NCBI RefSeq assembly: GCF_023556315.2
Contig: NZ_CP116221.1
Coordinates: 2,181,001-2,245,000, forward strand
Direction of reading: 5' to 3'
DNA: 64,000 nt
From: Psychroserpens ponticola
GTDB taxonomy: Bacteria; Bacteroidota; Bacteroidia; Flavobacteriales; Flavobacteriaceae
Position 1 is the stretch's first letter. Every line of letters begins with the position of its first letter. The notes beneath the pieces were generated by a model. That model made no database searches. It worked only from the letters and a program-made list of their open reading frames with translations, and was not told the DNA's origin. Positions 12,900-30,955 of this stretch are shown in pieces. The position numbers and the translations under genes were made by a program.

Positions 12900-12909
12900 A
12901 TATATACCC

Positions 12910-12925: not shown

Positions 12926-12943
12926 TTATTTAAATCTAATTTA

Positions 12944-15900
12944 CTATTTCCCTGAAGATACTAACTTCTTAGTAACTGAACCTTGATTTGTCGTTAACTT
13001 CACATAGAAGACTTGATTAGAAGTTCTTGATAGATCTAATTTAGTTCTACCTGTGGAACCTGCAACATATCTAGTGTTTGTTTCAGTTAATACTAATAAA
13101 CCTTTAGTATCAAAGAACTCAATAGTTACGTCTGTTCTGTAATCAAACTCATATGTAAGTGTTACCTCATTATCAAATGGTACTGGGAACGCTTTGAAAT
13201 CAATTTTAGATTCTTCTTTTGAACCAGTTAATGATAGTGGTCTAACATCGCTATTAGAACCTACAGTATAACTAGAATTTCTAGCAGATGGTTCATTATC
13301 AATTACCCAAGTATAAACGACATCACAAGTATCTTCATTACCACAATCATCTGTAGCAGTAAATGTTCTTGTTTTAGTATACTCTGTATAATCTAACTCT
13401 GCGAATCCACAATCAACAAAGATTGAATCACATCTACTTGAGTTAATATCCCAATCTGCTGGATCACAAGAAGGTGCATTATCAGACGAAGGTGAGAACC
13501 ATATATTTGATAAGAACACTCCATTCTGATACTCTTCTGTTATCCAAGTACTTGTAGACGAATCGTAAATCAATTCATATGTCAATTCTGGAGCATCATC
13601 TCTTGTACCAGTTGCATACTCTGCAATACCATCTCCATTGAATCCTGTTCTTACAAAATTAACTACGGCAAATAAAACGCCATCTTCAATACAACCTATA
13701 CTCAATTCAGTTGACTCTCCAAAGTACTGTTCTGAACTATCAACATCTGAATATGTTTCAGTTGTTCCTCCTGCATTTCCTTCATCACTGTAAGGTGCTG
13801 AAGTTGCAAATGCTGTTGGTGCTGTTTGTACAATACCAAAGTCTTCATCTGCTGGACACTCTAATACTGGTGCAACATCATCACAAGCTTGACCGATAGT
13901 CCAAGTGTAAGTAGTCTCACATTCACCAATATTTCCACATCCATCATCTGCTGTAAATGTACGTACTAATGTGTAAGTCGTTGTGCTTGAGTATTCAGGA
14001 CACTCTAAAGTAAATGCTTTATTATGACCATCTTGCTCTTCAAAGTACCATGCATCAGCATCACATGTTTCAAATGCATCTGCACTTGCTGTTCCTGCTA
14101 CGAATGGTCCATTTCCGAAATCTTGCATAACTTCATACTGCCCACTACCTGAATTATAAATAACTTCGAAAGTACCATACTGTGGTGATGGGTTTCCGTT
14201 AGTTGTTATAGATCCTGCATAATATGGTTTATCATTTTGAGTACCTGCTGGTTGACCTCCCAATGTTAGCACATAGCCTGCTTCAAAAGTAAACACATAA
14301 TCACCTTCTACATATGCAACTTCTCCTTGCTCTTCAGTAAGTACATCTGTATAATCAGCCGTTTCACCATTACCTTGACAGTTATCTGTCCAAGTTGCTT
14401 TATCAATAAAGTCTGGTGTTTCAGTTACAGTACCAAAGTCTTCACCTGCTGGGCAAGTTAATTCTGGTGCTGTTGTATCATTTATAATAAATGTACATAC
14501 TAATGGATCTGCTGATTTGTTTCCACAACTATCCTCTACATCAAATGTAACTGTTAATGTCGTTGAACAATCTGATTTAGATTCCTCTAATCCGATTACA
14601 GTAAATGTTAAGTCTTCAACTGCAGTACAGTTATCAGTATAACATCCGTAAATTGATCCTATTGCTCCTGCTGGAATTCCTCCTACAGTCCATTCTGAAT
14701 CTACTGATATTACATCTCCATCTACCAGAGAAAGACTTGCATCTTCTGGACAAGCTAAGCCATCCCAATCACTAGTATTAAGAACCATAACTTCATCTGT
14801 ACACTGACCAGTAGCCATTGGACCTTCAGAATCACCTCCTTGGTAGTTCACTTTGAATGTAGGGTAAACATTACCACAATCATCTTTAACGATGTATTCA
14901 AATACTCGTATCCACTCACAATCTGATCCTATAGCTAATTTTTCAATCTTAGTTACATTATCTGCTGTAATATCTGTACAGTTATCTGAGAATAATGCTG
15001 CTATATCTTCTTCTGTTGGTTCTCCCAAATCAGAATCTTTACATGCATTTACTGTATTCTCTCCCATTGGAATCTCTCCATCTAATTCTGGAGCCATTGT
15101 ATCTGCACCACTGTTTACAATTACTAAGTTTGGTAATTTGTTTCCACAAGTATCTTTAATCTCATACTCGTAAGTAGCAGTCCATCCACAATCATCTCCT
15201 TGAATATTAGGCTCAAATGGCGTAACCATTACATCTCCACAGTTATCTGTATAAGCATCCTGAATAGCTCCTAAATCTGGCGCTCCTGGATTTTCGCTTA
15301 AACACTGTAAGCCTGTAACACCTTCTGGTAAGTTTCCTACCAATTCTGGTGCAGACTTATCTCCACCGTTATGGTAAATTTTAACTGGTGCTGCATAGTT
15401 TCCACAGTCATCAACAATTGTATATCTGTATAATACTGCCCATAAGCAATCTGTATTCTCCTCTGGAGATGTGATTACTAAGGTTGCATTTACATTTCCA
15501 CAGTTATCTGTAAATAAGGCTTCAATCTCCTCCTCTGTTGGTGGAGCTGGTGCTCCTGATAAACATGCGTTTACATCTGATAATCCTTGAGGCAACTCTC
15601 CTACTAATATTGGAGCTGTTTCATCAATTACTGTGATTGTTTGTTTTGATGTTATCTCTACGCCACAAGAAACATATGAGAAATGAACTTCAAATGTTCC
15701 ACAGCTTCCTGTAAATTCATCAGCAACTCCTTGAACCTCTCCATTTATTCCACATGTTCCATCAATACCATTGCTGTAGCCTAAGAATTCTGGCTCATAA
15801 CTTGCTAAATCCTCACATGCAATACTAACGGATTCGATTGAATCGAATACTGGTGCTGGTGCTGGATTTACTTCTATATCAATCGGACCTGCACTTAATG

Positions 15901-18900
15901 GACGTCCACATACGTCATATCCTGACCAAGTTACAGTTAACTTTCCACCACATGCATCGTAATCTGGTACGATTGTAGCTTCTAATTCTCCTGAGATATT
16001 ACATGTTCCTTCTAAACCATTTGTATAGCTTGCATTTGCTGCCATATAACCTGCGGCATCTACACAATCAATACTAGCTGGAAGTAATGGTGTTGTTACA
16101 CTTGCTTCTGGTGCTGGGTTAACAATGATCTCAATTGGACCTGCACTTAATGGACGTTGACATTCGTCATATCCTGACCAAGTTACAGTTAATTTTCCTC
16201 CACATGACGTATAATCTGGTACGATAGTAGCTTCTAATTCTCCTGAGATATTACATGTTCCTTCTAAACCATTTGTATAGCTTGCATTTGCTGCCATATA
16301 ACCTGCTGCATCTGAACAATCAATACTAGCTGGAAGTTCTGGTGTTGTTACACTTGCTTCTGGTGCTGGATTAACGATGATCTCAATTGGACCTGCACTT
16401 AATGGACGTTGACATTCGTCATATCCTGACCAAGTTACAGTTAACTTTCCTCCACATGACGTATAATCTGGTACGATAGTAGCTTCTAATTCTCCTGAGA
16501 TATTACATGTTCCTTCTAAACCATTTGTATAGCTTGCATTTGCTGCCATATAACCTGCTGCATCTGAACAATCAATACTAGTTGGAAGTTCTGGTGTTGT
16601 TACACTTGCTTCTGGTGCTGGGTTAACAATGATCTCAATTGGACCTGCACTTAATGGACGTTGACATTCGTCTAAGCCTCTCCAAGTTACAGTTAACTTT
16701 CCTCCACATGACGTATAATCTGGTACGATAGTAGCTTCTAATTCTCCTGAGATATTACATGTTCCTTCTAAACCATTTGTATAGCTTGCATTTGCTGCCA
16801 TATAACCTGCTGCATCTGAACAATCAATACTAGTTGGAAGTAATGGTGTTGTTACACTTGCTTCTGGTGCTGGGTTAACGATGATCTCAATTGGACCTGC
16901 ACTTAATGGACGTTGACATTCGTCTAAGCCTCTCCAAGTTACAGTTAATTTTCCTCCACATGACGTATAATCTGGTACGATAGTAGCTTCTAATTCTCCT
17001 GAGATATTACATGTTCCTTCTAAACCATTTGTATAGCTTGCATTTGCTGCCATATAACCTGCGGCATCTGAACAATCAATACTAGCTGGAAGTTCTGGTG
17101 TTGTTACACTTGCTTCTGGTGCTGGGTTAACGATGATCTCAATTGGACCTGCACTTAATGGACGTTGACATTCATCATATCCTGACCAAGTTACAGTTAA
17201 TTTTCCTCCACATGACGTATAATCTGGTACGATAGTAGCTTCTAATTCTCCTGAGATATTACATGTTCCTTCTAAACCATTTGTATAGCTTGCATTCGCT
17301 GCCATATAACCTGCGGCATCTGAACAATCAATACTAGTTGGAAGTTCTGGTGTTGTTACACTTGCTTCTGGTGCTGGATTAACGATGATCTCAATTGGAC
17401 CTGCACTTAATGGACGTTGACATTCGTCATATCCTCTCCAAGTTACAGTTAATTTTCCTCCACATGACGTATAATCTGGTACGATAGTAGCTTCTAATTC
17501 TCCTGAGATATTACATGTTCCTTCTAAACCATTTGTATAGCTTGCATTTGCTGCCATATAACCTGCTGCATCTGAACAATCAATACTAGTTGGAAGTTCT
17601 GGTGTTGTTACACTTGCTTCTGGTGCTGGATTAACGATGATCTCAATTGGACCTGCACTTAATGGATTTTGACATACGTCATATCCTGACCAAGTTACGG
17701 TTAGCTTTCCTCCACATACAGTATAATCTGGTACGATAGTAGCTTCTAATTCTCCTGAAATCTCACATAAACCTGTTAAGCCATTTGTATAGCTTGCGTT
17801 TGCTGCCATATATCCTGCTGCATCTGAACAATCAATACTAGCTGGAAGTTCTGGTGTTGTTACACTTGCTTCTGGTGCTGGCAAAACTGTAATTGTTTTT
17901 CTGTATTCGATTTCTCGTCCACAATCATCTACAAATTTCCAGTCTACATATAAAGTTCCTCCACATGCATCATAGCTTCCTGTTTTTACTCCTGGTACAT
18001 CTCCATTGATTCCACAAGTTCCTTCTAAACCATTACTATATGCTAAATTAGTAACGATATAATCGTCTGCTAAATCACATGTTACATTGATATTTGGTAA
18101 AGGATTTATAAATTCAGCCATTGGTGCTGGATCTACTGATATCGTTTGTGAAGCACTTAATGCACGTCCACAAACATCTTCTCCTGACCATGTTACTGTG
18201 ATTTCTCCGCCACACTCATCAAAATTATTCGTTTGAGTTGGCTCTAAATATCCTGAAATATTACATGTACCTTCTAATCCATTTGTATAATACAATGAGT
18301 CTGCTTGATAAGAATCTGCATCTGAACAACTTAACATCTCATCCTCTAATGTATCTAACGTTGCCTCTGGTGCTGGACCTACTTTTAATTGCTTTCTTGC
18401 TGTAATTGTTCGTCCACATTGATCTGTATAAGTCCAATCTACAAACAATAAACCTCCACATGAGTTAAACTCTCCACTTAATACTCCGTCTACTGAACCA
18501 TTAATTCCACATTCACCTTCTAAACCATTAGAATATGATAATAATCCTGCTTCATAATTTGCTGCTTCTGAACATGTAATATCTTCGTGTTCTGTTTCTT
18601 CGAAACTAGCCTCTGGCGCTGGTGTAACATTGATTACAAATGGTCCTGCCATCAAATCTCTATCACAAGCATCTTTAGTTAAATAATTAACAGTAATTGT
18701 TCCTCCGCAAAGGTCATAGTTAAAATCTACATCAGCATTAATAGCACCTGTTAATCCACAAGCAGTACCATCTAAACCATTACTATAAGTAGCATCCGCA
18801 GCTGTAAAGTTTGCTGCTTCTGAACACATAATATCTGATGGGAATTCTGGAACTGACACTGTAGGTTGTGGTGCTGGAATTACAATAATTTCAAATGGAC

Positions 18901-21049
18901 CTGCATTTAGTGGACGTCCACATGCATCTTCTCCTGAATATGAAACTGTAATAAATCCACCACAATTTCCATAACTATTCTGTACTGTTGCTTCAAGTTC
19001 TCCTGAAATATTACAAGTACCATCTAATCCATTTGTATATGTTGCGTTTGCCGCATTGAAAGCATTAGCTTCTTCACAAGACAGTGATTCAGCAAACTCT
19101 GGAGTAGTTACACTAGCTTCTGGAGCTGGTAATACATTAATATCTACTGTTGCGCTTAATGGGTTTCCACAAGCATCTTCTCCTGTCCAAGTTATTGTGA
19201 TTTTTCCGCCACATGAATCAAAATCATTTACTTGTTCTGGGTTTACTGATCCATCTAAACTACAATCTCCTTCTAAGCCATTTGAATAATTTAATGCTGC
19301 TGCTACATAACCGGATGCATCTGAACATGATAATTCTGACTCAACATCAATAGCTTCAAACTCTGCCGCTGGTGCTGGTAAGACTACGATATCTACTAAT
19401 GTACTTAATGGATTACCACATGTATCTTCTCCGATATAGTTTACTGTGATTTTTCCGCCACAAGCATCAAATAAATTCTTTTGAATTGGTGCTATTGAAC
19501 CATTTATACTACAATCTCCTTCTAAGCCATTACTATAGCCTAATGATCCTGCAACATATGAGGATGCTTCCTCACAACTTAATGGTGTATTATCTGTTGC
19601 GTCTAATGTCGCTGCTGGTGCTGGTGTTACGGTATAAACCTTCTCCGCGTTTATTGTTCGTCCACAGTCATCTGAATACGTCCAGTTTACAGTAATATCT
19701 CCTCCACAAAGTGTAAAGTTTGGTGTTACTGTTCCTGATACTGATCCTTGAATTGAACATGCACTTTTTGATATACCATTGCTATATAATAAATCTTCTG
19801 CTTGGAAGTTAAATGCTGCTTCACATGAAATTGTCTCTGGTGAAACTGGTGCAAATTCTGCCATTGGTGCTGGTAACACAACTATTGTTTGAGTACCTAC
19901 AACGGCCATGTTTCCACATAGATCCATTGCTGACCATGTTCTTACTAATTCTCCGCCTTCACAAGCTAATCCTAGATTATCATAATTCTCATTAAGAATT
20001 ACTTCAACATTTGCTGTACAGTTATCTGTTGCTGTAACATTAGCTGCTGCTGGTATTAAATCTATACATGATACTTCTGTATTTGCTGGAACGCCACTTA
20101 ATACTGGTGCTTCTGAATCACCTCCCATGTACTCAATAAAGATTGGCTCTGCAAAGTTCCCACAGTCATCTTGAATTGTATACTCAAATGCTGATAACCA
20201 TTTACAATCATCATTACCTTTTTCTGTCGTTAATGTTTTTGTTACCGTTACTGTTCCGCAATTATCCCAATATAAGGCTGCTATTTCTGCTTCTGTTGGA
20301 CCTAATGGTTTCTGATCATAACATAAGTTTAAACCATTCATTCCTGTTGGAACTTCTGATCCTTTATTTAATTGTGGCGCTTGAGTATCGCCTCCACTAT
20401 AATGAATATCTAAATCCGCTAACATGTTACCACAAGTATCCATAATTGTATACTTGTAATTTGCTGTCCATGAACAATCATCGCCTTGAGGGGAACCAAA
20501 CTTCTCTACTAGAACTTCTCCACAGTTATCTGTGTAAAGACCTGCTATTGTTGATAATTTTGGACCGCTTGGTGCTTGATTAAAACATAAGTTTAAACCT
20601 GTTGCTCCACTTGGAACTTGAGCGCCTTCATTTAATAATGGAGGTGTTCTATCTCCTCCTGTATAAGGAATCTTTATCTCGCCTTCGAATGAACCACACT
20701 TTATAGAGTAAGTGTATTCAACTGTCCAATCACAATCATTACCTGACATGATTGATGACTTGATAACTTCTGCTGGAGTGTCGCCACATTGATTTAAATA
20801 CAAGTTCGCTACATCTGCCTCACTTGGTCCTGCTGGTGCCTCGTCTTGACAGCCTTCGATGAAAGATCTTCTCTCTAACGATTGTGCTGCGACTGTACTT
20901 ATACTAAACCCAAAAAGCATCACAAAGGCAAACGCCTTCATAACTCTTGTTTGATTTGTAATAAGATCAAGGCTACAACACGATAAATTTGTGATAGACT
21001 GCCAGATTTTGGCGCGACCACCACTTCGGGTAAAATTGCTCATAAACAT
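12944..21049 (-). CDS. Giant T9SS-exported HYR-like repeat protein, copy A (2701 aa)
   Basis: A surface or secreted protein of unknown function. A hydrophobic signal (MKAFAFVMLFGFSISTVAAQ, residues 37-56) follows an unusual 36-residue N-terminal extension. Then come three cysteine-rich modules of about 95 residues ending in DxCGN-type strands, one HYR-like domain, and 17 modules of about 84 residues. Each of these 17 begins PAP and usually carries four cysteines around a YTNGL.G.C...CGG core. Modules 9-16 (about 1057-1728) are nearly identical. Further HYR-like modules follow, with inserted domains around 2236-2358 and after. The last roughly 85 residues form a T9SS type A sorting domain. The four-cysteine modules resemble HYR-like repeats of Bacteroidota adhesin-like proteins. 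It is a paralogue of 21854-30955. Confidence 0.9.
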   Translation of the reverse strand: MFMSNFTRSGGRAKIWQSITNLSCCSLDLITNQTRVMKAFAFVMLFGFSISTVAAQSLERRSFIEGCQDEAPAGPSEADVANLYLNQCGDTPAEVIKSSIMSGNDCDWTVEYTYSIKCGSFEGEIKIPYTGGDRTPPLLNEGAQVPSGATGLNLCFNQAPSGPKLSTIAGLYTDNCGEVLVEKFGSPQGDDCSWTANYKYTIMDTCGNMLADLDIHYSGGDTQAPQLNKGSEVPTGMNGLNLCYDQKPLGPTEAEIAALYWDNCGTVTVTKTLTTEKGNDDCKWLSAFEYTIQDDCGNFAEPIFIEYMGGDSEAPVLSGVPANTEVSCIDLIPAAANVTATDNCTANVEVILNENYDNLGLACEGGELVRTWSAMDLCGNMAVVGTQTIVVLPAPMAEFAPVSPETISCEAAFNFQAEDLLYSNGISKSACSIQGSVSGTVTPNFTLCGGDITVNWTYSDDCGRTINAEKVYTVTPAPAATLDATDNTPLSCEEASSYVAGSLGYSNGLEGDCSINGSIAPIQKNLFDACGGKITVNYIGEDTCGNPLSTLVDIVVLPAPAAEFEAIDVESELSCSDASGYVAAALNYSNGLEGDCSLDGSVNPEQVNDFDSCGGKITITWTGEDACGNPLSATVDINVLPAPEASVTTPEFAESLSCEEANAFNAANATYTNGLDGTCNISGELEATVQNSYGNCGGFITVSYSGEDACGRPLNAGPFEIIVIPAPQPTVSVPEFPSDIMCSEAANFTAADATYSNGLDGTACGLTGAINADVDFNYDLCGGTITVNYLTKDACDRDLMAGPFVINVTPAPEASFEETEHEDITCSEAANYEAGLLSYSNGLEGECGINGSVDGVLSGEFNSCGGLLFVDWTYTDQCGRTITARKQLKVGPAPEATLDTLEDEMLSCSDADSYQADSLYYTNGLEGTCNISGYLEPTQTNNFDECGGEITVTWSGEDVCGRALSASQTISVDPAPMAEFINPLPNINVTCDLADDYIVTNLAYSNGLEGTCGINGDVPGVKTGSYDACGGTLYVDWKFVDDCGREIEYRKTITVLPAPEASVTTPELPASIDCSDAAGYMAANASYTNGLTGLCEISGELEATIVPDYTVCGGKLTVTWSGYDVCQNPLSAGPIEIIVNPAPEASVTTPELPTSIDCSDAAGYMAANASYTNGLEGTCNISGELEATIVPDYTSCGGKLTVTWRGYDECQRPLSAGPIEIIVNPAPEASVTTPELPTSIDCSDAAGYMAANASYTNGLEGTCNISGELEATIVPDYTSCGGKLTVTWSGYDECQRPLSAGPIEIIVNPAPEASVTTPELPASIDCSDAAGYMAANASYTNGLEGTCNISGELEATIVPDYTSCGGKLTVTWRGLDECQRPLSAGPIEIIVNPAPEASVTTPLLPTSIDCSDAAGYMAANASYTNGLEGTCNISGELEATIVPDYTSCGGKLTVTWRGLDECQRPLSAGPIEIIVNPAPEASVTTPELPTSIDCSDAAGYMAANASYTNGLEGTCNISGELEATIVPDYTSCGGKLTVTWSGYDECQRPLSAGPIEIIVNPAPEASVTTPELPASIDCSDAAGYMAANASYTNGLEGTCNISGELEATIVPDYTSCGGKLTVTWSGYDECQRPLSAGPIEIIVNPAPEASVTTPLLPASIDCVDAAGYMAANASYTNGLEGTCNISGELEATIVPDYDACGGKLTVTWSGYDVCGRPLSAGPIDIEVNPAPAPVFDSIESVSIACEDLASYEPEFLGYSNGIDGTCGINGEVQGVADEFTGSCGTFEVHFSYVSCGVEITSKQTITVIDETAPILVGELPQGLSDVNACLSGAPAPPTEEEIEALFTDNCGNVNATLVITSPEENTDCLWAVLYRYTIVDDCGNYAAPVKIYHNGGDKSAPELVGNLPEGVTGLQCLSENPGAPDLGAIQDAYTDNCGDVMVTPFEPNIQGDDCGWTATYEYEIKDTCGNKLPNLVIVNSGADTMAPELDGEIPMGENTVNACKDSDLGEPTEEDIAALFSDNCTDITADNVTKIEKLAIGSDCEWIRVFEYIVKDDCGNVYPTFKVNYQGGDSEGPMATGQCTDEVMVLNTSDWDGLACPEDASLSLVDGDVISVDSEWTVGGIPAGAIGSIYGCYTDNCTAVEDLTFTVIGLEESKSDCSTTLTVTFDVEDSCGNKSADPLVCTFIINDTTAPELTCPAGEDFGTVTETPDFIDKATWTDNCQGNGETADYTDVLTEEQGEVAYVEGDYVFTFEAGYVLTLGGQPAGTQNDKPYYAGSITTNGNPSPQYGTFEVIYNSGSGQYEVMQDFGNGPFVAGTASADAFETCDADAWYFEEQDGHNKAFTLECPEYSSTTTYTLVRTFTADDGCGNIGECETTYTWTIGQACDDVAPVLECPADEDFGIVQTAPTAFATSAPYSDEGNAGGTTETYSDVDSSEQYFGESTELSIGCIEDGVLFAVVNFVRTGFNGDGIAEYATGTRDDAPELTYELIYDSSTSTWITEEYQNGVFLSNIWFSPSSDNAPSCDPADWDINSSRCDSIFVDCGFAELDYTEYTKTRTFTATDDCGNEDTCDVVYTWVIDNEPSARNSSYTVGSNSDVRPLSLTGSKEESKIDFKAFPVPFDNEVTLTYEFDYRTDVTIEFFDTKGLLVLTETNTRYVAGSTGRTKLDLSRTSNQVFYVKLTTNQGSVTKKLVSSGK
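13976..14342 (-). other. Copy-A-specific exchanged domain segment (367 bp)
   Basis: Inside an otherwise near-identical gene pair, this stretch is unrelated at the nucleotide level to its counterpart at 22886-23246. The flanks agree to the base (ending ..GTGTA on one side, starting ACATCTG.. on the other). It encodes about 122 residues inserted in a HYR-like domain, with the pattern FEVIYNSGSGQYEV then CDADAW. The same pattern recurs in the copy-B segment (SLIFNSGNNRWEL, CNSSDW) and in the next, shared domain (ELIYDSSTSTWIT, CDPADW). All three are therefore divergent members of one domain family. Confidence 0.85.
15866..17881 (-). repeat. Tandem array of eight 252-bp modules, copy A
   Basis: Exactly 2016 bp, equal to 8 x 252 bp, each unit encoding 84 residues from PAPEASVTTP to EIIVN. 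Modules differ at a few positions: E/L before LP, A/T in LPAS/LPTS, and WSGY/WRGY/WRGL. They also differ at some silent sites, in mosaic combinations. The first module (..LTGLCEIS..TVCGG..DVCQN) and the last (IDCVDAAG..DACGG..DVCGR) are distinctive and shared with copy B. Confidence 0.95.
18630..19096 (-). other. Copy-A-specific exchanged module pair (467 bp)
   Basis: Sequence between sharply defined identical flanks differs from its counterpart at 28542-29002. It covers most of two 84-residue modules (starting near EFAESLSC and EFPSDIMC). The segment is 6 bp (two codons) longer than in copy B and the reading frame is kept. Confidence 0.85.
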
Positions 21050-21205
21050 AGAATTTGGTTTTAAATTAAAATTATTTTAACATTTATATTTGACTACATT
21101 TCTGTAATCTGATATAACCTAAAGCTAGTTTTAGCTTAGGCAATAGGTTTGCTTTAAATGAGTAAAATTAACATACGAAATATCGCAAGGTCAAATCACT
21201 CTAGT

Positions 21206-21284
21206 CTTGAATACATTACATATTCAAAAATCAATAAATGTGCTAATAATCAATTGTTGTGCTATCAAACAATTTTATGGTAAG
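21206..21284 (-). promoter_or_regulatory. Conserved leader island with candidate promoter and operator, copy A
   Basis: These 79 bases are perfectly identical to 31111-31189, while the surrounding leaders differ at many positions. On the minus strand they hold TTG (complement of 21251-21253), 18 nt, then GATTTTTG (complement of 21225-21232), one mismatch from TAnnTTTG. An inverted repeat AATTGTT-N9-AACAATT (21252-21274) overlaps the -33 element and could be an operator. The inferred leader is about 170 nt. Promoter function is inferred from conservation and motif. Confidence 0.5.
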
Positions 21285-21285
21285 G

Positions 21286-21322
21286 ACATGAAAAATAATT
21301 GCTATAATTCTACTTTTCATGT
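21286..21322. repeat. Inverted repeat with a compensatory change between copies
   Basis: Arms ACATGAAAA and TTTTCATGT (21286-21294, 21314-21322) form a perfect 9-bp stem. The copy-B counterpart (31191-31199, 31221-31229) has C-G where copy A has T-A at the fourth pair. A paired change of this kind suggests the dyad is maintained. It may be a regulatory dyad upstream of the giant genes or an end signal for hutH. Confidence 0.45.
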
Positions 21323-21441
21323 AGTTAAAATGAATAAAACTCACCTTAACTTGATTCCAAAAATATATTATAGAAAGTTTGCTTCCAAATAAATTTATTG
21401 TTTTTTCTTACATTAAACAGTTCAACTTTTCTTTTATGCAT

Positions 21442-21522
21442 TTGGTCGGAAACTAATTGATTCAGTATGTAAAAATCGTCGATAAAAAGCATAGTGATTT
21501 TCGTCTTTTTATAAAAAATACT
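21442..21522 (-). pseudogene. Decayed fragment of the 3' end of hutH
   Basis: These 81 bases align without gaps to 31347-31427, the last 26 codons and stop of intact hutH, at 59 of 81 positions by hand count (about 73%). The fragment still encodes LFIDDFYILNQLVSD against HFIDDFCIENELLFD, and the hutH stop TAA has become CAA. Homology ends at about 21522. The fragment has no start and cannot be functional. It is a scar of the tandem duplication. Confidence 0.85.
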
Positions 21523-21781
21523 CAAATAAAAATTGAAATACTTAAAAATCAAAAACGATTTAAACTAAAAATTTTAATGCTATTTTTTCTCATTTACTAC
21601 TCTTTAAAATCATAGAATTTATATCAATCTGATACAACCCAAACAATATTATTCACAATACAATAAAAAATAATTAAAACTAGCATCGTCATTATTTATT
21701 AATATAAGATATCTCGTTTCTCATGCTTCGTTCTGTCGATGTGACAAAACACATATTTCAAATCTCAAAATAATGCATACA

Positions 21782-21809
21782 AAAAGGCAGCTATTTCTAG
21801 CTGCCTTTT
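21782..21809 (-). terminator. Terminator of giant gene copy B
   Basis: Same 12-bp perfect hairpin as downstream of copy A (AAAAGGCAGCTA opposite TAGCTGCCTTTT), 45 nt after the stop codon. Confidence 0.8.
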
Positions 21810-21819
21810 ATATATACCC

Positions 21820-21835
21820 TTAGGGAATTCCCTAA
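21820..21835. repeat. Perfect 16-bp palindrome downstream of giant gene B
   Basis: TTAGGGAATTCCCTAA, identical in sequence and position to the copy-A palindrome at 12910-12925. Confidence 0.7.
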
Positions 21836-21853
21836 TTATTTAAATCTAATTTA

Positions 21854-24800
21854 CTATTTCCCTGAAGATACTAACTTCTTAGTAACTGAACCTTGATTTG
21901 TCGTTAACTTCACATAGAAGACTTGATTAGAAGTTCTTGATAGATCTAATTTAGTTCTACCTGTGGAACCTGCAACATATCTAGTGTTTGTTTCAGTTAA
22001 TACTAATAAACCTTTAGTATCAAAGAACTCAATAGTTACGTCTGTTCTGTAATCAAACTCATATGTAAGTGTTACCTCATTATCAAATGGTACTGGGAAC
22101 GCTTTGAAATCAATTTTAGATTCTTCTTTTGAACCAGTTAATGATAGTGGTCTAACATCGCTATTAGAACCTACAGTATAACTAGAATTTCTAGCAGATG
22201 GTTCATTATCAATTACCCAAGTATAAACGACATCACAAGTATCTTCATTACCACAATCATCTGTAGCAGTAAATGTTCTTGTTTTAGTATACTCTGTATA
22301 ATCTAACTCTGCGAATCCACAATCAACAAAGATTGAATCACATCTACTTGAGTTAATATCCCAATCTGCTGGATCACAAGAAGGTGCATTATCAGACGAA
22401 GGTGAGAACCATATATTTGATAAGAACACTCCATTCTGATACTCTTCTGTTATCCAAGTACTTGTAGACGAATCGTAAATCAATTCATATGTCAATTCTG
22501 GAGCATCATCTCTTGTACCAGTTGCATACTCTGCAATACCATCTCCATTGAATCCTGTTCTTACAAAATTAACTACGGCAAATAAAACGCCATCTTCAAT
22601 ACAACCTATACTCAATTCAGTTGACTCTCCAAAGTACTGTTCTGAACTATCAACATCTGAATATGTTTCAGTTGTTCCTCCTGCATTTCCTTCATCACTG
22701 TAAGGTGCTGAAGTTGCAAATGCTGTTGGTGCTGTTTGTACAATACCAAAGTCTTCATCTGCTGGACACTCTAATACTGGTGCAACATCATCACAAGCTT
22801 GACCGATAGTCCAAGTGTAAGTAGTCTCACATTCACCAATATTTCCACATCCATCATCTGCTGTAAATGTACGTACTAATGTGTACTCTTCAACACTTCC
22901 AGATTCACATATTACATCAAGAATTGAGCAATCAGGATGAACATCAGTCCAATCGGAAGAATTACAAGAAGGTTCAAATGTATTTACATAACTTACAGCA
23001 ATAATTGCAGCATTGCTTACAAGTCTTAACTCCCATCTATTATTTCCTGAATTAAAGATTAAAGAATATGGTTCTGTATTAACTTGACCTTGATACTCAT
23101 TAACACTCACGTCATAAAGATTATATCCATCTATATCAGTACCAATAGCATCTTCGAAATTAATTAGGAATGAATTTCCAACATAAAAACAATCAAATGT
23201 AATTCCACTTACACCATTTCCTGATGTACTTGTACTAGATGAAATCACATCTGTATAATCAGCCGTTTCACCATTACCTTGACAGTTATCTGTCCAAGTT
23301 GCTTTATCAATAAAGTCTGGTGTTTCAGTTACAGTACCAAAGTCTTCACCTGCTGGGCAAGTTAATTCTGGTGCTGTTGTATCATTTATAATAAATGTAC
23401 ATACTAATGGATCTGCTGATTTGTTTCCACAACTATCCTCTACATCAAATGTAACTGTTAATGTCGTTGAACAATCTGATTTAGATTCCTCTAATCCGAT
23501 TACAGTAAATGTTAAGTCTTCAACTGCAGTACAGTTATCAGTATAACATCCGTAAATTGATCCTATTGCTCCTGCTGGAATTCCTCCTACAGTCCATTCT
23601 GAATCTACTGATATTACATCTCCATCTACCAGAGAAAGACTTGCATCTTCTGGACAAGCTAAGCCATCCCAATCACTAGTATTAAGAACCATAACTTCAT
23701 CTGTACACTGACCAGTAGCCATTGGACCTTCAGAATCACCTCCTTGGTAGTTCACTTTGAATGTAGGGTAAACATTACCACAATCATCTTTAACGATGTA
23801 TTCAAATACTCGTATCCACTCACAATCTGATCCTATAGCTAATTTTTCAATCTTAGTTACATTATCTGCTGTAATATCTGTACAGTTATCTGAGAATAAT
23901 GCTGCTATATCTTCTTCTGTTGGTTCTCCCAAATCAGAATCTTTACATGCATTTACTGTATTCTCTCCCATTGGAATCTCTCCATCTAATTCTGGAGCCA
24001 TTGTATCTGCACCACTGTTTACAATTACTAAGTTTGGTAATTTGTTTCCACAAGTATCTTTAATCTCATACTCGTAAGTAGCAGTCCATCCACAATCATC
24101 TCCTTGAATATTAGGCTCAAATGGCGTAACCATTACATCTCCACAGTTATCTGTATAAGCATCCTGAATAGCTCCTAAATCTGGCGCTCCTGGATTTTCG
24201 CTTAAACACTGTAAGCCTGTAACACCTTCTGGTAAGTTTCCTACCAATTCTGGTGCAGACTTATCTCCACCGTTATGGTAAATTTTAACTGGTGCTGCAT
24301 AGTTTCCACAGTCATCAACAATTGTATATCTGTATAATACTGCCCATAAGCAATCTGTATTCTCCTCTGGAGATGTGATTACTAAGGTTGCATTTACATT
24401 TCCACAGTTATCTGTAAATAAGGCTTCAATCTCCTCCTCTGTTGGTGGAGCTGGTGCTCCTGATAAACATGCGTTTACATCTGATAATCCTTGAGGCAAC
24501 TCTCCTACTAATATTGGAGCTGTTTCATCAATTACTGTGATTGTTTGTTTTGATGTTATCTCTACGCCACAAGAAACATATGAGAAATGAACTTCAAATG
24601 TTCCACAGCTTCCTGTAAATTCATCAGCAACTCCTTGAACCTCTCCATTTATTCCACATGTTCCATCAATACCATTGCTGTAGCCTAAGAATTCTGGCTC
24701 ATAACTTGCTAAATCCTCACATGCAATACTAACGGATTCGATTGAATCGAATACTGGTGCTGGTGCTGGATTTACTTCTATATCAATCGGACCTGCACTT

Positions 24801-27800
24801 AATGGACGTCCACATACGTCATATCCTGACCAAGTTACAGTTAACTTTCCACCACATGCATCGTAATCTGGTACGATTGTAGCTTCTAATTCTCCTGAGA
24901 TATTACATGTTCCTTCTAAACCATTTGTATAGCTTGCATTTGCTGCCATATAACCTGCGGCATCTACACAATCAATACTAGCTGGAAGTAATGGTGTTGT
25001 TACACTTGCTTCTGGTGCTGGGTTAACAATGATCTCAATTGGACCTGCACTTAATGGACGTTGACATTCGTCATATCCTGACCAAGTTACAGTTAATTTT
25101 CCTCCACATGACGTATAATCTGGTACGATAGTAGCTTCTAATTCTCCTGAGATATTACATGTTCCTTCTAAACCATTTGTATAGCTTGCATTTGCTGCCA
25201 TATAACCTGCTGCATCTGAACAATCAATACTAGCTGGAAGTTCTGGTGTTGTTACACTTGCTTCTGGTGCTGGATTAACGATGATCTCAATTGGACCTGC
25301 ACTTAATGGACGTTGACATTCGTCATATCCTGACCAAGTTACAGTTAACTTTCCTCCACATGACGTATAATCTGGTACGATAGTAGCTTCTAATTCTCCT
25401 GAGATATTACATGTTCCTTCTAAACCATTTGTATAGCTTGCATTTGCTGCCATATAACCTGCTGCATCTGAACAATCAATACTAGTTGGAAGTAATGGTG
25501 TTGTTACACTTGCTTCTGGTGCTGGGTTAACAATGATCTCAATTGGACCTGCACTTAATGGACGTTGACATTCGTCTAAGCCTCTCCAAGTTACAGTTAA
25601 CTTTCCTCCACATGACGTATAATCTGGTACGATAGTAGCTTCTAATTCTCCTGAGATATTACATGTTCCTTCTAAACCATTTGTATAGCTTGCATTTGCT
25701 GCCATATAACCTGCTGCATCTGAACAATCAATACTAGTTGGAAGTAATGGTGTTGTTACACTTGCTTCTGGTGCTGGGTTAACGATGATCTCAATTGGAC
25801 CTGCACTTAATGGACGTTGACATTCATCATATCCTGACCAAGTTACAGTTAATTTTCCTCCACATGACGTATAATCTGGTACGATAGTAGCTTCTAATTC
25901 TCCTGAGATATTACATGTTCCTTCTAAACCATTTGTATAGCTTGCATTTGCTGCCATATAACCTGCTGCATCTGAACAATCAATACTAGTTGGAAGTTCT
26001 GGTGTTGTTACACTAGCTTCTGGTGCTGGGTTAACAATGATCTCAATTGGACCTGCACTTAATGGACGTTGACATTCGTCATATCCTGACCAAGTTACAG
26101 TTAATTTTCCTCCACATGACGTATAATCTGGTACGATAGTAGCTTCTAATTCTCCTGAGATATTACATGTTCCTTCTAAACCATTTGTATAGCTTGCATT
26201 TGCTGCCATATAACCTGCTGCATCTGAACAATCAATACTAGCTGGAAGTTCTGGTATTGTTACACTTGCTTCTGGTGCTGGATTAACGATGATCTCAATT
26301 GGTCCTGCACTTAATGGACGTTGACATTCATCATATCCTCTCCAAGTTACAGTTAATTTTCCTCCACATGACGTATAATCTGGTACGATAGTAGCTTCTA
26401 ATTCTCCTGAGATATTACATGTTCCTTCTAAACCATTTGTATAGCTTGCATTTGCTGCCATATAACCTGCTGCATCTGAACAATCAATACTAGTTGGAAG
26501 TTCTGGTGTTGTTACACTTGCTTCTGGTGCTGGGTTAACAATGATCTCAATTGGACCTGCACTTAATGGACGTTGACATTCGTCTAAGCCTCTCCAAGTT
26601 ACAGTTAATTTTCCTCCACATGACGTATAATCTGGTACGATAGTAGCTTCTAATTCTCCTGAGATATTACATGTTCCTTCTAAACCATTTGTATAGCTTG
26701 CATTTGCTGCCATATAACCTGCTGCATCTGAACAATCAATACTAGCTGGAAGTAATGGTGTTGTTACACTTGCTTCTGGTGCTGGGTTAACAATGATCTC
26801 AATTGGACCTGCACTTAATGGACGTTGACATTCGTCATATCCTGACCAAGTTACAGTTAACTTTCCTCCACATGACGTATAATCTGGTACGATAGTAGCT
26901 TCTAATTCTCCTGAGATATTACATGTTCCTTCTAAACCATTTGTATAGCTTGCATTTGCTGCCATATAACCTGCTGCATCTGAACAATCAATACTAGCTG
27001 GAAGTTCTGGTGTTGTTACACTTGCTTCTGGTGCTGGGTTAACGATGATCTCAATTGGACCTGCACTTAATGGACGTTGACATTCATCATATCCTGACCA
27101 AGTTACAGTTAATTTTCCTCCACATGACGTATAATCTGGTACGATAGTAGCTTCTAATTCTCCTGAGATATTACATGTTCCTTCTAAACCATTTGTATAG
27201 CTTGCATTCGCTGCCATATAACCTGCGGCATCTGAACAATCAATACTAGTTGGAAGTTCTGGTGTTGTTACACTTGCTTCTGGTGCTGGATTAACGATGA
27301 TCTCAATTGGACCTGCACTTAATGGACGTTGACATTCGTCATATCCTCTCCAAGTTACAGTTAATTTTCCTCCACATGACGTATAATCTGGTACGATAGT
27401 AGCTTCTAATTCTCCTGAGATATTACATGTTCCTTCTAAACCATTTGTATAGCTTGCATTTGCTGCCATATAACCTGCTGCATCTGAACAATCAATACTA
27501 GTTGGAAGTTCTGGTGTTGTTACACTTGCTTCTGGTGCTGGATTAACGATGATCTCAATTGGACCTGCACTTAATGGATTTTGACATACGTCATATCCTG
27601 ACCAAGTTACGGTTAGCTTTCCTCCACATACAGTATAATCTGGTACGATAGTAGCTTCTAATTCTCCTGAAATCTCACATAAACCTGTTAAGCCATTTGT
27701 ATAGCTTGCGTTTGCTGCCATATATCCTGCTGCATCTGAACAATCAATACTAGCTGGAAGTTCTGGTGTTGTTACACTTGCTTCTGGTGCTGGCAAAACT

Positions 27801-30800
27801 GTAATTGTTTTTCTGTATTCGATTTCTCGTCCACAATCATCTACAAATTTCCAGTCTACATATAAAGTTCCTCCACATGCATCATAGCTTCCTGTTTTTA
27901 CTCCTGGTACATCTCCATTGATTCCACAAGTTCCTTCTAAACCATTACTATATGCTAAATTAGTAACGATATAATCGTCTGCTAAATCACATGTTACATT
28001 GATATTTGGTAAAGGATTTATAAATTCAGCCATTGGTGCTGGATCTACTGATATCGTTTGTGAAGCACTTAATGCACGTCCACAAACATCTTCTCCTGAC
28101 CATGTTACTGTGATTTCTCCGCCACACTCATCAAAATTATTCGTTTGAGTTGGCTCTAAATATCCTGAAATATTACATGTACCTTCTAATCCATTTGTAT
28201 AATACAATGAGTCTGCTTGATAAGAATCTGCATCTGAACAACTTAACATCTCATCCTCTAATGTATCTAACGTTGCCTCTGGTGCTGGACCTACTTTTAA
28301 TTGCTTTCTTGCTGTAATTGTTCGTCCACATTGATCTGTATAAGTCCAATCTACAAACAATAAACCTCCACATGAGTTAAACTCTCCACTTAATACTCCG
28401 TCTACTGAACCATTAATTCCACATTCACCTTCTAAACCATTAGAATATGATAATAATCCTGCTTCATAATTTGCTGCTTCTGAACATGTAATATCTTCGT
28501 GTTCTGTTTCTTCGAAACTAGCCTCTGGCGCTGGTGTAACAGTAACAAATTGCTCATAATACAATTCTCTACCACATTCATCAACAAAATCCCAAGTCAC
28601 TAATAATTCTCCTCCACATATTGTAGAAGTTCCACTTAATACTCCTGTTACTGAACCTGAAATTTCACAAGTTCCTGCTAAACCATTACTATAATTTAAT
28701 GTGTCTGGCACAAATCCATCAACGTCAACACAAGAAATAACAATATCTCCTGGCCCATCTATTATTTCTGCCATTGGTGCTGGATTAACATCTACATCAA
28801 ATGGACCTGCGCTTAGTGGGCGACCACAAGCATCTTCTCCATTATATGTAATCGTAATTTTACCACCACATGAATCATATTCTTTAACTACGTTTGCTAC
28901 TAAAGATCCTGAAATTTCACAATCTCCTGTTAATCCATTAGTATAAGTAGCATCTCCTGCTGTAAAGCTTACTGCATCTGCACAATCAATACTTGTCGGA
29001 AGCTCTGGAGTAGTTACACTAGCTTCTGGAGCTGGTAATACATTAATATCTACTGTTGCGCTTAATGGGTTTCCACAAGCATCTTCTCCTGTCCAAGTTA
29101 TTGTGATTTTTCCGCCACATGAATCAAAATCATTTACTTGTTCTGGGTTTACTGATCCATCTAAACTACAATCTCCTTCTAAGCCATTTGAATAATTTAA
29201 TGCTGCTGCTACATAACCGGATGCATCTGAACATGATAATTCTGACTCAACATCAATAGCTTCAAACTCTGCCGCTGGTGCTGGTAAGACTACGATATCT
29301 ACTAATGTACTTAATGGATTACCACATGTATCTTCTCCGATATAGTTTACTGTGATTTTTCCGCCACAAGCATCAAATAAATTCTTTTGAATTGGTGCTA
29401 TTGAACCATTTATACTACAATCTCCTTCTAAGCCATTACTATAGCCTAATGATCCTGCAACATATGAGGATGCTTCCTCACAACTTAATGGTGTATTATC
29501 TGTTGCGTCTAATGTCGCTGCTGGTGCTGGTGTTACGGTATAAACCTTCTCCGCGTTTATTGTTCGTCCACAGTCATCTGAATACGTCCAGTTTACAGTA
29601 ATATCTCCTCCACAAAGTGTAAAGTTTGGTGTTACTGTTCCTGATACTGATCCTTGAATTGAACATGCACTTTTTGATATACCATTGCTATATAATAAAT
29701 CTTCTACTTGGAAGTTAAATGCTGCTTCACATGAAATTGTCTCTGGTGAAACTGGTGCAAATTCTGCCATTGGTGCTGGTAACACAACTATTGTTTGAGT
29801 ACCTACAACGGCCATGTTTCCACATAGATCCATTGCTGACCATGTTCTTACTAATTCTCCGCCTTCACAAGCTAATCCTAGATTATCATAATTCTCATTA
29901 AGAATTACTTCAACATTTGCTGTACAGTTATCTGTTGCTGTAACATTAGCTGCTGCTGGTATTAAATCTATACATGATACTTCTGTATTTGCTGGAACGC
30001 CACTTAAAACTGGTGCTTCTGAATCACCTCCCATGTACTCAATAAAGATTGGCTCTGCAAAGTTCCCACAGTCATCTTGAATTGTATACTCAAATGCTGA
30101 TAACCATTTACAATCATCATTACCTTTTTCTGTCGTTAATGTTTTTGTTACCGTTACTGTTCCGCAATTATCCCAATATAAGGCTGCTATTTCTGCTTCT
30201 GTTGGACCTAATGGTTTCTGATCATAACATAAGTTTAAACCATTCATTCCTGTTGGAACTTCTGATCCTTTATTTAATTGTGGCGCTTGAGTATCGCCTC
30301 CACTATAATGAATATCTAAATCCGCTAACATGTTACCACAAGTATCCATAATTGTATACTTGTAATTTGCTGTCCATGAACAATCATCGCCTTGAGGGGA
30401 ACCAAACTTCTCTACTAGAACTTCTCCACAGTTATCTGTGTAAAGACCTGCTATTGTTGATAATTTTGGACCGCTTGGTGCTTGATTAAAACATAAGTTT
30501 AAACCTGTTGCTCCACTTGGAACTTGAGCGCCTTCATTTAATAATGGAGGTGTTCTATCTCCTCCTGTATAAGGAATCTTTATCTCGCCTTCGAATGAAC
30601 CACACTTTATAGAGTAAGTGTATTCAACTGTCCAATCACAATCATTACCTGACATGATTGATGACTTGATAACTTCTGCTGGAGTGTCGCCACATTGATT
30701 TAAATACAAGTTCGCTACATCTGCCTCACTTGGTCCTGCTGGTGCCTCGTCTTGACAGCCTTCGATGAAAGATCTTCTCTCTAACGATTGTGCTGCGACT

Positions 30801-30955
30801 GTACTTATACTAAACCCAAAAAGCATCACAAAGGCAAACGCCTTCATAACTCTTGTTTGATTTGTAATAAGATCAAGGCTACAACACGATAAATTTGTGA
30901 TAGACTGCCAGATTTTGGCGCGACCACCACTTCGGGTAAAATTGCTCATAAACAT
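21854..30955 (-). CDS. Giant T9SS-exported HYR-like repeat protein, copy B (3033 aa)
   Basis: Paralogue of 12944-21049 with the same plan: a 36-residue N-terminal extension, signal peptide, three N-terminal cysteine-rich modules, a HYR-like domain, 21 four-cysteine modules of about 84 residues, further HYR-like modules with inserted domains, and a C-terminal T9SS type A sorting domain. The 12-module core spans residues about 1055-2062. The protein should pass the inner membrane by Sec and the outer membrane by T9SS, then be attached to or released from the cell surface. Changes relative to copy A outside the exchanged segments are very few; I noticed QVEDLL for QAEDLL. Adhesion or surface-layer function is plausible but unproven. 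Its leader separates it from hutH on the same strand. Confidence 0.9.
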   Translation of the reverse strand: MFMSNFTRSGGRAKIWQSITNLSCCSLDLITNQTRVMKAFAFVMLFGFSISTVAAQSLERRSFIEGCQDEAPAGPSEADVANLYLNQCGDTPAEVIKSSIMSGNDCDWTVEYTYSIKCGSFEGEIKIPYTGGDRTPPLLNEGAQVPSGATGLNLCFNQAPSGPKLSTIAGLYTDNCGEVLVEKFGSPQGDDCSWTANYKYTIMDTCGNMLADLDIHYSGGDTQAPQLNKGSEVPTGMNGLNLCYDQKPLGPTEAEIAALYWDNCGTVTVTKTLTTEKGNDDCKWLSAFEYTIQDDCGNFAEPIFIEYMGGDSEAPVLSGVPANTEVSCIDLIPAAANVTATDNCTANVEVILNENYDNLGLACEGGELVRTWSAMDLCGNMAVVGTQTIVVLPAPMAEFAPVSPETISCEAAFNFQVEDLLYSNGISKSACSIQGSVSGTVTPNFTLCGGDITVNWTYSDDCGRTINAEKVYTVTPAPAATLDATDNTPLSCEEASSYVAGSLGYSNGLEGDCSINGSIAPIQKNLFDACGGKITVNYIGEDTCGNPLSTLVDIVVLPAPAAEFEAIDVESELSCSDASGYVAAALNYSNGLEGDCSLDGSVNPEQVNDFDSCGGKITITWTGEDACGNPLSATVDINVLPAPEASVTTPELPTSIDCADAVSFTAGDATYTNGLTGDCEISGSLVANVVKEYDSCGGKITITYNGEDACGRPLSAGPFDVDVNPAPMAEIIDGPGDIVISCVDVDGFVPDTLNYSNGLAGTCEISGSVTGVLSGTSTICGGELLVTWDFVDECGRELYYEQFVTVTPAPEASFEETEHEDITCSEAANYEAGLLSYSNGLEGECGINGSVDGVLSGEFNSCGGLLFVDWTYTDQCGRTITARKQLKVGPAPEATLDTLEDEMLSCSDADSYQADSLYYTNGLEGTCNISGYLEPTQTNNFDECGGEITVTWSGEDVCGRALSASQTISVDPAPMAEFINPLPNINVTCDLADDYIVTNLAYSNGLEGTCGINGDVPGVKTGSYDACGGTLYVDWKFVDDCGREIEYRKTITVLPAPEASVTTPELPASIDCSDAAGYMAANASYTNGLTGLCEISGELEATIVPDYTVCGGKLTVTWSGYDVCQNPLSAGPIEIIVNPAPEASVTTPELPTSIDCSDAAGYMAANASYTNGLEGTCNISGELEATIVPDYTSCGGKLTVTWRGYDECQRPLSAGPIEIIVNPAPEASVTTPELPTSIDCSDAAGYMAANASYTNGLEGTCNISGELEATIVPDYTSCGGKLTVTWSGYDECQRPLSAGPIEIIVNPAPEASVTTPELPASIDCSDAAGYMAANASYTNGLEGTCNISGELEATIVPDYTSCGGKLTVTWSGYDECQRPLSAGPIEIIVNPAPEASVTTPLLPASIDCSDAAGYMAANASYTNGLEGTCNISGELEATIVPDYTSCGGKLTVTWRGLDECQRPLSAGPIEIIVNPAPEASVTTPELPTSIDCSDAAGYMAANASYTNGLEGTCNISGELEATIVPDYTSCGGKLTVTWRGYDECQRPLSAGPIEIIVNPAPEASVTIPELPASIDCSDAAGYMAANASYTNGLEGTCNISGELEATIVPDYTSCGGKLTVTWSGYDECQRPLSAGPIEIIVNPAPEASVTTPELPTSIDCSDAAGYMAANASYTNGLEGTCNISGELEATIVPDYTSCGGKLTVTWSGYDECQRPLSAGPIEIIVNPAPEASVTTPLLPTSIDCSDAAGYMAANASYTNGLEGTCNISGELEATIVPDYTSCGGKLTVTWRGLDECQRPLSAGPIEIIVNPAPEASVTTPLLPTSIDCSDAAGYMAANASYTNGLEGTCNISGELEATIVPDYTSCGGKLTVTWSGYDECQRPLSAGPIEIIVNPAPEASVTTPELPASIDCSDAAGYMAANASYTNGLEGTCNISGELEATIVPDYTSCGGKLTVTWSGYDECQRPLSAGPIEIIVNPAPEASVTTPLLPASIDCVDAAGYMAANASYTNGLEGTCNISGELEATIVPDYDACGGKLTVTWSGYDVCGRPLSAGPIDIEVNPAPAPVFDSIESVSIACEDLASYEPEFLGYSNGIDGTCGINGEVQGVADEFTGSCGTFEVHFSYVSCGVEITSKQTITVIDETAPILVGELPQGLSDVNACLSGAPAPPTEEEIEALFTDNCGNVNATLVITSPEENTDCLWAVLYRYTIVDDCGNYAAPVKIYHNGGDKSAPELVGNLPEGVTGLQCLSENPGAPDLGAIQDAYTDNCGDVMVTPFEPNIQGDDCGWTATYEYEIKDTCGNKLPNLVIVNSGADTMAPELDGEIPMGENTVNACKDSDLGEPTEEDIAALFSDNCTDITADNVTKIEKLAIGSDCEWIRVFEYIVKDDCGNVYPTFKVNYQGGDSEGPMATGQCTDEVMVLNTSDWDGLACPEDASLSLVDGDVISVDSEWTVGGIPAGAIGSIYGCYTDNCTAVEDLTFTVIGLEESKSDCSTTLTVTFDVEDSCGNKSADPLVCTFIINDTTAPELTCPAGEDFGTVTETPDFIDKATWTDNCQGNGETADYTDVISSSTSTSGNGVSGITFDCFYVGNSFLINFEDAIGTDIDGYNLYDVSVNEYQGQVNTEPYSLIFNSGNNRWELRLVSNAAIIAVSYVNTFEPSCNSSDWTDVHPDCSILDVICESGSVEEYTLVRTFTADDGCGNIGECETTYTWTIGQACDDVAPVLECPADEDFGIVQTAPTAFATSAPYSDEGNAGGTTETYSDVDSSEQYFGESTELSIGCIEDGVLFAVVNFVRTGFNGDGIAEYATGTRDDAPELTYELIYDSSTSTWITEEYQNGVFLSNIWFSPSSDNAPSCDPADWDINSSRCDSIFVDCGFAELDYTEYTKTRTFTATDDCGNEDTCDVVYTWVIDNEPSARNSSYTVGSNSDVRPLSLTGSKEESKIDFKAFPVPFDNEVTLTYEFDYRTDVTIEFFDTKGLLVLTETNTRYVAGSTGRTKLDLSRTSNQVFYVKLTTNQGSVTKKLVSSGK
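22886..23246 (-). other. Copy-B-specific exchanged domain segment (361 bp)
   Basis: Counterpart of 13976-14342 with identical flanks but different content. It encodes an inserted domain of about 120 residues with SLIFNSGNNRWEL and a CNSSDW...C...C tail. That tail is closer in layout to the shared downstream domain (CDPADW...C...C) than to the copy-A segment. Confidence 0.85.
24770..27793 (-). repeat. Tandem array of twelve 252-bp modules, copy B
   Basis: Exactly 3024 bp, equal to 12 x 252 bp. The first three modules and the last two carry the same residue variants as the corresponding ends of the copy-A array. The middle seven form a different mosaic of the same variants. This fits expansion and contraction by unequal recombination anchored at the ends. 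Confidence 0.95.
28542..29002 (-). other. Copy-B-specific exchanged module pair (461 bp)
   Basis: Counterpart of 18630-19096. It encodes most of two modules (starting near TSIDCADAVSF and GDIVISCVDVDG) that differ from those of copy A. The flanking modules look identical in both copies and the frame is preserved. Confidence 0.85.

What the first reader, a model, noticed from the sequence alone, without database searches (positions are those of the whole stretch)
21442..21522. Fossil 3' end of hutH marks the duplication end point and dates it as old
Seen: 81 bases between the giant genes align without gaps to the last 26 codons and stop of intact hutH (31347-31427) at 59/81 positions, with the stop changed to CAA. 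The giant-gene ends, duplicated in the same event, show almost no differences. Inference: the duplication is old and the giant genes are homogenised by gene conversion, while the useless hutH tail drifted freely.
Basis: partly seen in the sequence, partly recalled or inferred. Interest (0 to 1): 0.8.

Follow-up and report, generated by a model that had tools for sequence, protein, structure and literature searches.

The report
Twin giant genes kept identical
A worn-out scrap of a neighbouring gene lies between two nearly identical giant surface-protein genes of a marine bacterium and shows that the pair is an old duplication whose coding parts keep being copied over one another, while their control regions and two inner segments stay different.

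Summary
In detail: window 21442-21522 matches the hutH end (26 codons plus stop) at 59/81 without gaps; 1000 shuffles of the spacer reach at most 47. It is the hutH-side end of a tandem duplication of a giant, probably T9SS-exported surface-protein gene in a Psychroserpens-like flavobacterium. P. jangbogonensis (G020) has the pair with the same scrap, starting within a few bases of the same hutH position, with the same stop-to-CAA change. Upstream of the start codon copies group by position across species (W_A with G020_2, 100/100; W_A+W_B rejected, p-AU 2e-5); from the start codon on they group by genome (informative sites 327 to 0). So the duplication predates a split at dS about 0.5, yet W's copies differ at dS 0.002: concerted evolution. 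Corrections: homogenisation is patchy (two inner cassettes and the promoter regions escape), the other duplication end cannot be placed, and 81 bases alone resolve little. A third pair (G013) has a shorter scrap, probably from an independent duplication. A known kind; a clean, dated example. Conversion and unequal crossing-over are not separated.

The parts
21442..21522 (-). hutH 3' fossil (26 codons plus former stop, now CAA); hutH-side end of the tandem duplication
   Evidence: 59/81 to 31347-31427, shuffles at most 47; also in G020, and a shorter one in G013
31347..32858 (-). intact hutH (histidine ammonia-lyase), parent of the fossil
   Evidence: TIGR01225 593 bits, cutoff 539; synteny nnr-tlpA-hutH-giant in relatives
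12944..21049 (-). giant gene copy A (2701 aa), second after hutH; 8 units of a 252-bp repeat
   Evidence: ORF; HYR_4C 43.3 bits, cutoff 27; Por_Secre_tail 26.6 bits, just under its cutoff 27; repeats
21854..30955 (-). giant gene copy B (3033 aa), next to hutH; 12 units of the 252-bp repeat
   Evidence: ORF; HYR_4C 29.9 bits, FlgD_ig 39.3 bits, both cutoffs 27; Por_Secre_tail 26.4 under cutoff 27; repeats
21053..21441 (-). upstream/promoter region of copy A, diverged from that of B; groups by position with G020_2
   Evidence: tree and AU test; site patterns
30957..31346 (-). upstream/promoter region of copy B; nearest sequence G020_1 (83.7%), though that pair is not itself a resolved clade
21206..21284 (-). 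79-nt island identical in A and B (31111-31189) inside the diverged upstream region; regulatory element and/or short conversion tract (inference)
   Evidence: alignment; largely conserved in G020, partly in G012
19097..21050 (-). homogenised 5' block (B 29003-30956), 2 differences in 1954 bp
18630..19096 (-). divergent cassette 1 of copy A (B 28542-29002), about 59% in alignment
14343..18629 (-). homogenised middle block with the 252-bp repeat array (B 23247-28541); 14343-16150 and 17600-18629 have no difference, unit number 8 versus 12
13976..14342 (-). divergent cassette 2 of copy A (B 22886-23246); no protein match between A and B; A-type shared with G012's last copy at 91% protein identity
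12796..13975 (-). homogenised 3' block incl. terminator-like hairpin (B 21706-22885), 0 differences in 1180 bp
21523..21705 (.). spacer between B's homogenised 3' end and the fossil; origin not recognisable
   Evidence: no similarity beyond shuffles to the candidates tried

Best explanation
Shown: a segment running from within the last 27 codons of hutH through the whole giant gene was tandemly duplicated before the window's lineage split from P. jangbogonensis (G020). Since then the coding sequences of the two copies have become homogenised within each genome, while the sequence upstream of the start codon, including the hutH scrap, has evolved separately at each position. Inferred: the homogenisation is mainly RecA-type gene conversion between two long, closely spaced direct repeats. 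It spreads where homology is long (stalk repeats, conserved ends) and fails, or is selected against, where the copies already differ (two cassettes, promoters). The pair would then be two cell-surface proteins with a shared stalk, different variable modules and separately evolving promoters.
For: Upstream 470 nt: W_A-G020_2 80.9%, W_B-G020_1 83.7%, against W_A-W_B 79.5% and G020_1-G020_2 72.7%; first 1900 nt of CDS: W_A-W_B 99.9%, G020_1-G020_2 96.9%, between species about 81%. Trees and AU tests in opposite directions on the two sides of the ATG (16 of 21 extracted rows used). Four-sequence informative sites: upstream position 29, genome 11, cross 5; CDS genome 327, position 0, cross 0. Shared scrap and stop-to-CAA change in W and G020. 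dS between W's copies 0.002 (1 synonymous difference in 630 codons) against 0.50-0.52 to either G020 copy, ordinary for this locus (gyrA 0.47, clp 0.77, hutH 0.85, nnr 0.89). One copy in the same place in relatives whose locus is complete. No third copy of the N-terminal block in the genome.
Against: W_B+G020_1 is not itself recovered as a clade (log-likelihood difference 0.53, p-AU 0.37), so position grouping rests on the W_A+G020_2 side. Within the 81-base scrap alone the W fossil is slightly closer to W hutH (59/81) than to the G020 fossil (56/81). 11 upstream sites support genome grouping. G020 copy 2 is cut by a contig end after 679 aa; its 3' part was assigned to contig C60 by neighbourhood only. 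No reads were available to exclude assembly smoothing. Conversion and unequal crossing-over are not separated.
Confidence: 0.92

Rival explanations
1. Concerted evolution by cycles of unequal crossing-over (2 to 3 to 2 copies) between sister chromosomes rather than by non-reciprocal conversion. The inter-gene spacer with the fossil survives such cycles, and the genes become hybrids.
For: The copies are direct repeats 8.9-9.9 kb apart whose near-identical arrays differ by four 252-bp units, so unequal exchange happens at least inside the array.
Against: The alternation of identical and divergent blocks (five blocks inside one gene) needs several exchanges with switch points at the cassette borders; short tracts explain this more simply. 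Not excluded.
Confidence: 0.25
2. The duplication is recent, and the upstream region with the fossil simply mutates fast.
For: The coding copies are nearly identical in W.
Against: Position-specific upstream states and the stop-to-CAA change are shared with G020, a species at dS about 0.5; W_A+W_B as a clade is rejected upstream (p-AU 2e-5).
Confidence: 0.01
3. Independent duplications in W and G020, each young.
For: Coding copies group by genome. G013 probably is such a case: its copies group together upstream too (100/100), its scrap is shorter (43 of 46 bases ungapped, against 81 in W; a gapped alignment reaches 69) and keeps TAA, and its dS is 0.13 in the N-block.
Against: W_A+G020_2 upstream 100/100 and the shared stop-to-CAA change.
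Confidence: 0.02
4. Purifying selection alone keeps the two proteins alike.
For: The giant N-block is constrained between species (dN 0.15, dS 0.50).
Against: Silent sites are equally identical: 1 synonymous difference over 630 codons in W, and 148 bp past the stop are identical.
Confidence: 0.01
5. Assembly artefact: the consensus of one copy was written into both.
For: Long near-identical stretches are a known difficulty, and no reads could be inspected.
Against: The copies carry different cassettes, repeat numbers and flanks. G020 and G013, separate assemblies, show the same layout with 3.1% difference in the first 1900 coding bases.
Confidence: 0.03

Closest known systems
Concerted evolution of multi-copy bacterial genes by gene conversion (rRNA operons; tuf genes of Salmonella); passages of PMC6002687 read, the tuf case is cited there
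   Same: Copies within a genome nearly identical, copies between species divergent, attributed to non-reciprocal transfer
   Different: Here a tandem pair of giant surface-protein genes; the promoter side and two coding cassettes escape; a gene scrap marks and dates the junction
HMW1/HMW2 adhesin pair of Haemophilus influenzae (passages of PMC4849778 read)
   Same: Two paralogous large adhesins whose binding domains differ strongly (33.8% identity between HMW1 and HMW2 of strain 12) and whose places are swapped between strains
   Different: Other phylum and export route, two separate loci rather than one tandem pair; no homology tested or claimed
T9SS-exported repeat surface proteins of Bacteroidota (HYR_4C, Por_Secre_tail)
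   Same: HYR_4C above cutoff; C-terminal sorting domain hit just under cutoff
   Different: Function of this family untested; no paper on this gene in the listings

Membership tests
Concerted evolution of an orthologous tandem duplicate pair | Duplication older than the species split | tested here: met
   W_A+G020_2 upstream clade 100/100, shared scrap and stop change
Concerted evolution of an orthologous tandem duplicate pair | Copies more alike within than between genomes in the homogenised part | tested here: met
   99.9% and 96.9% within, about 81% between; tree and AU
Concerted evolution of an orthologous tandem duplicate pair | Silent sites homogenised too (not selection on protein) | tested here: met
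   dS 0.002 against 0.50-0.52
Concerted evolution of an orthologous tandem duplicate pair | Non-reciprocal, RecA-dependent transfer | not testable with these tools
   needs strains, reads or experiments
T9SS type A cargo | C-terminal sorting domain PF18962 | tested here: inconclusive
   26.6 and 26.4 bits, cutoff 27
T9SS type A cargo | N-terminal Sec signal peptide | not tested
   a hydrophobic stretch follows an inner Met in the consensus; no predictor was run
HYR-domain surface proteins | HYR_4C (PF23237) above gathering cutoff | tested here: met
   43.3 bits in A and 29.9 in B, cutoff 27

The most novel reading that the evidence does not exclude
The pair is a cassette-exchange surface-protein system: conversion keeps the stalk, ends and repeats of the two giant genes identical so that variable modules (cassette 2 above all) can be swapped between copies and strains by homologous recombination in the shared flanks, while separate promoters let the two versions be used separately. 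In each of the three two-copy genomes the C-terminal region differs between the copies (W; G013; G020, last copy assigned by neighbourhood), and C-terminal types recur across species (W_A cassette 2 with G012's last copy, 91% protein; G020's last-copy piece with G006, 63% over 742 columns).
Probability: 0.2. Interest if true: 0.65.

Novelty: new member of a known kind. Interest (0 to 1): 0.5.

Why it matters
Within-genome identity alone can mean a recent duplication as well as concerted evolution. Here a non-functional scrap and the promoter regions, copied in the same event, act as an internal clock: they keep the age and positional history while the coding sequence is rewritten, with the switch at the start codon. 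It warns against dating bacterial duplications by the identity of the genes, and it gives a natural map of where homogenisation stops inside a large surface-protein gene.

Tried and rejected
Tried without result: placing the other (3') duplication end by local alignment of the 183-bp spacer against the sequence downstream of copy A, hutH beyond the fossil, the G020 spacer and the sequence downstream of G020's last copy; none beat shuffles, nor did the G020 and G013 spacers against their own downstream sequence. G019 (P. mesophilus) and G012 could not be scored for copy number: one upstream region found in each, contigs end before or inside the gene. Cassette 1 shows no clear position or species grouping. 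Pfam gives nothing above cutoff for the cassettes. Structure prediction was not run; it does not bear on the fossil.

Rejected: young duplication, independent duplication in W and G020, selection alone (see rivals). Considered and dropped: recent import of W_A cassette 2 from the G012 lineage; its DNA identity to G012 (81-92% in 25-codon windows) is ordinary for descent between these genomes (gyrA-clp-orf122 87%, hutH 83%).

Rows dropped: the trees use 16 of the 21 extracted starts (left out: G008, G011, G014, G018, G027); the identity table uses 7 of 21. One search uses 12 of the 48 loci, namely those that hold hutH, one giant C-terminus and orf122.

Errors of mine: the query named giantC was one base out of frame and those rows are used for no count; one search read the G020 C60 and G012 C98 pieces in a wrong frame, redone. 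The G012 C98 piece holds some undetermined residues near its start.

Full report
The finding.

The scrap is real. 59 of 81 positions match the end of hutH without gaps and the stop reads CAA. No other place in the window apart from hutH exceeds 43/81, and 1000 shuffles of the spacer reach at most 47. It is continuous with about 390 further bases that match the region between hutH and copy B, about 79% overall. hutH itself is intact and meets its NCBIfam model (593 bits, cutoff 539).

The duplicated unit is a mosaic. In A's coordinates: upstream region and fossil 21053-21522 about 79%, containing an identical 79-nt island (21206-21284); 5' block 19097-21050 with 2 differences in 1954 bp; cassette 1, 18630-19096, about 59%; middle block 14343-18629, with no difference in 14343-16150 and 17600-18629 and a repeat array between; cassette 2, 13976-14342, 43-49%, which is no better than unrelated (no protein match between the copies); 3' block 12796-13975 with no difference in 1180 bp, 148 of them past the stop. 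The array of 252-bp units has 8 in A and 12 in B; six of A's eight units have an exact twin in B, the other two differ from their nearest B unit by 2 and 4 bases. Beyond 12796/21706 nothing aligns better than chance. A search of the genome with the N-terminal block finds only these two genes.

Relatives. The held set has 23 genomes of the genus, the window's own included. The order nnr-tlpA-hutH-giant, with orf122-clp-gyrA after the giant gene, is conserved. Copy number among the 23: two copies in three (the window, G020, G013); one copy on one contig in seven (G005, G006, G007, G011, G014, G016, and G022, where the frame from the first start motif is short); unknown in eleven because contigs break at or inside the gene (G001, G003, G004, G008, G009, G010, G012, G015, G017, G018, G019); G002 gave no match to the N-terminal block and G021 only weak ones. 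G027, another genus of the family, has one copy.

Test 1, the scrap elsewhere. G020 carries it before its second copy; it starts within a few bases of the same hutH position, ends in CAA, and matches the W hutH tail at 58/81 and its own at 53/81. G013 has a shorter one: 43 of 46 bases ungapped against its own hutH (a gapped alignment reaches 69), with TAA kept. In 12 single-copy loci, of the 48 found (those that hold hutH, one giant C-terminus and orf122), the spacer after the giant gene has no hutH tail that beats all shuffles; the closest are L090 (5 of 200 shuffles reach the score) and L092 (9 of 200); the three two-copy spacers beat all 200.

Test 2, grouping. Upstream of the start codon copies group by position: W_A with G020_2 at 100/100, W_A+W_B rejected (log-likelihood 36.5 worse, p-AU 2e-5), G020_1+G020_2 rejected (p-AU 6e-4); W_B+G020_1 is compatible but not resolved (p-AU 0.37). 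In the first 1110 bases of the gene W_A+W_B and G020_1+G020_2 are clades and the position clades are worse by 604 and 508 log-likelihood units. Site by site over the four sequences, upstream gives 29 position, 11 genome and 5 cross sites; the first 1900 coding bases give 0, 327 and 0 (Fisher p 3e-34 for position against genome, treating sites as independent). The last position-type site is two bases before the ATG. Against this: the 81-base scrap on its own does not decide (W fossil to W hutH 59, to G020 fossil 56; 6, 2 and 2 sites).

Age. W and G020 differ at dS 0.47 (gyrA) to 0.89 (nnr) around the locus and 0.50-0.52 in the giant N-block, while the two W copies differ at dS 0.002 (one synonymous difference) and the two G020 copies at 0.056. 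The duplication is older than that split, so without homogenisation the W copies should differ by at least as much as the species do.

G013. Its copies group together upstream as well as in the gene, its scrap starts elsewhere, and its dS is 0.13 in the N-block, ranging from 0.045 to 0.23 in 100-codon windows up to residue 2200. I read this as a separate duplication with a breakpoint in the same hutH tail; an older shared one with upstream conversion is not excluded.

What the differences may mean. Homogenisation stops at the start codon and skips two cassettes. In each of the three two-copy genomes the C-terminal region before the sorting-domain end differs between the copies (W: cassette 2; G013: residues about 2200-2600; G020: residues 340-712 of the last-copy piece on C60 are 43% identical to copy 1). 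W_A's cassette 2 is 91% identical in protein to that of G012's last copy and has no match in W_B, but its DNA identity to G012 (81-92%) is within ordinary descent. The reading 'one stalk, two variable modules, two promoters' is inference; no function was tested. The proteins have HYR_4C domains above cutoff and a T9SS sorting domain just under it.

Mechanism. Gene conversion between close direct repeats is the simplest account of alternating tracts, and it is the one given for other bacterial duplicates (PMC6002687, passages). Unequal crossing-over with later loss would preserve the spacer as well and is not excluded.

Literature. Seven searches (listings seen, passages of two papers) listed no report on this gene pair. 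This says little, since most subscription journals are not held.

Verdict. It is a new, well-dated member of a known kind.

Noticed in passing
window 20940-21049 and 30846-30955: All 21 giant-gene starts extracted begin with the same 20 bases (ATGTTTATGAGCAATTTTAC); a conserved leader of about 30-37 residues (different in G013 after residue 7) precedes what looks like a signal peptide. Its role is unknown.
   Followed up: no
window 12860-12943 and 21770-21853: After the stop, a TTAGGGA...CCCTAA palindrome-like stretch and a hairpin AAAGGCAGCTA...TAGCTGCCTTTT recur in nearly all the relatives printed (the palindrome-like part is weaker in G027).
   Followed up: no
L072 (G019, P. mesophilus), last bases: The contig after hutH ends about 19 bases into the upstream island, and no giant start is found in this assembly, as expected if a second identical island exists; not proof of a second copy.
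   Followed up: partly
window 32960-34021: The tlpA-like gene matches over nearly its full length in G020, G012, G013 and G027, but only as two separated pieces in the other relatives, suggesting a rebuilt middle part.
   Followed up: no
L110 14057-14842: orf122 is present twice in tandem after the giant gene of Aquaticitalea lipolytica.
   Followed up: no
L032/L033 (G020): The two G020 copies show more nonsynonymous than synonymous differences by count in the N-block (35.5 to 22.5; pN 0.024, pS 0.054), unlike G013 (9.5 to 48.5).
   Followed up: no
L043 (G022) about 10767: The open frame from the conserved start motif stops after 47 codons, while the giant-gene similarity goes on from residue 33-34; frameshift or sequencing error.
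   Followed up: no
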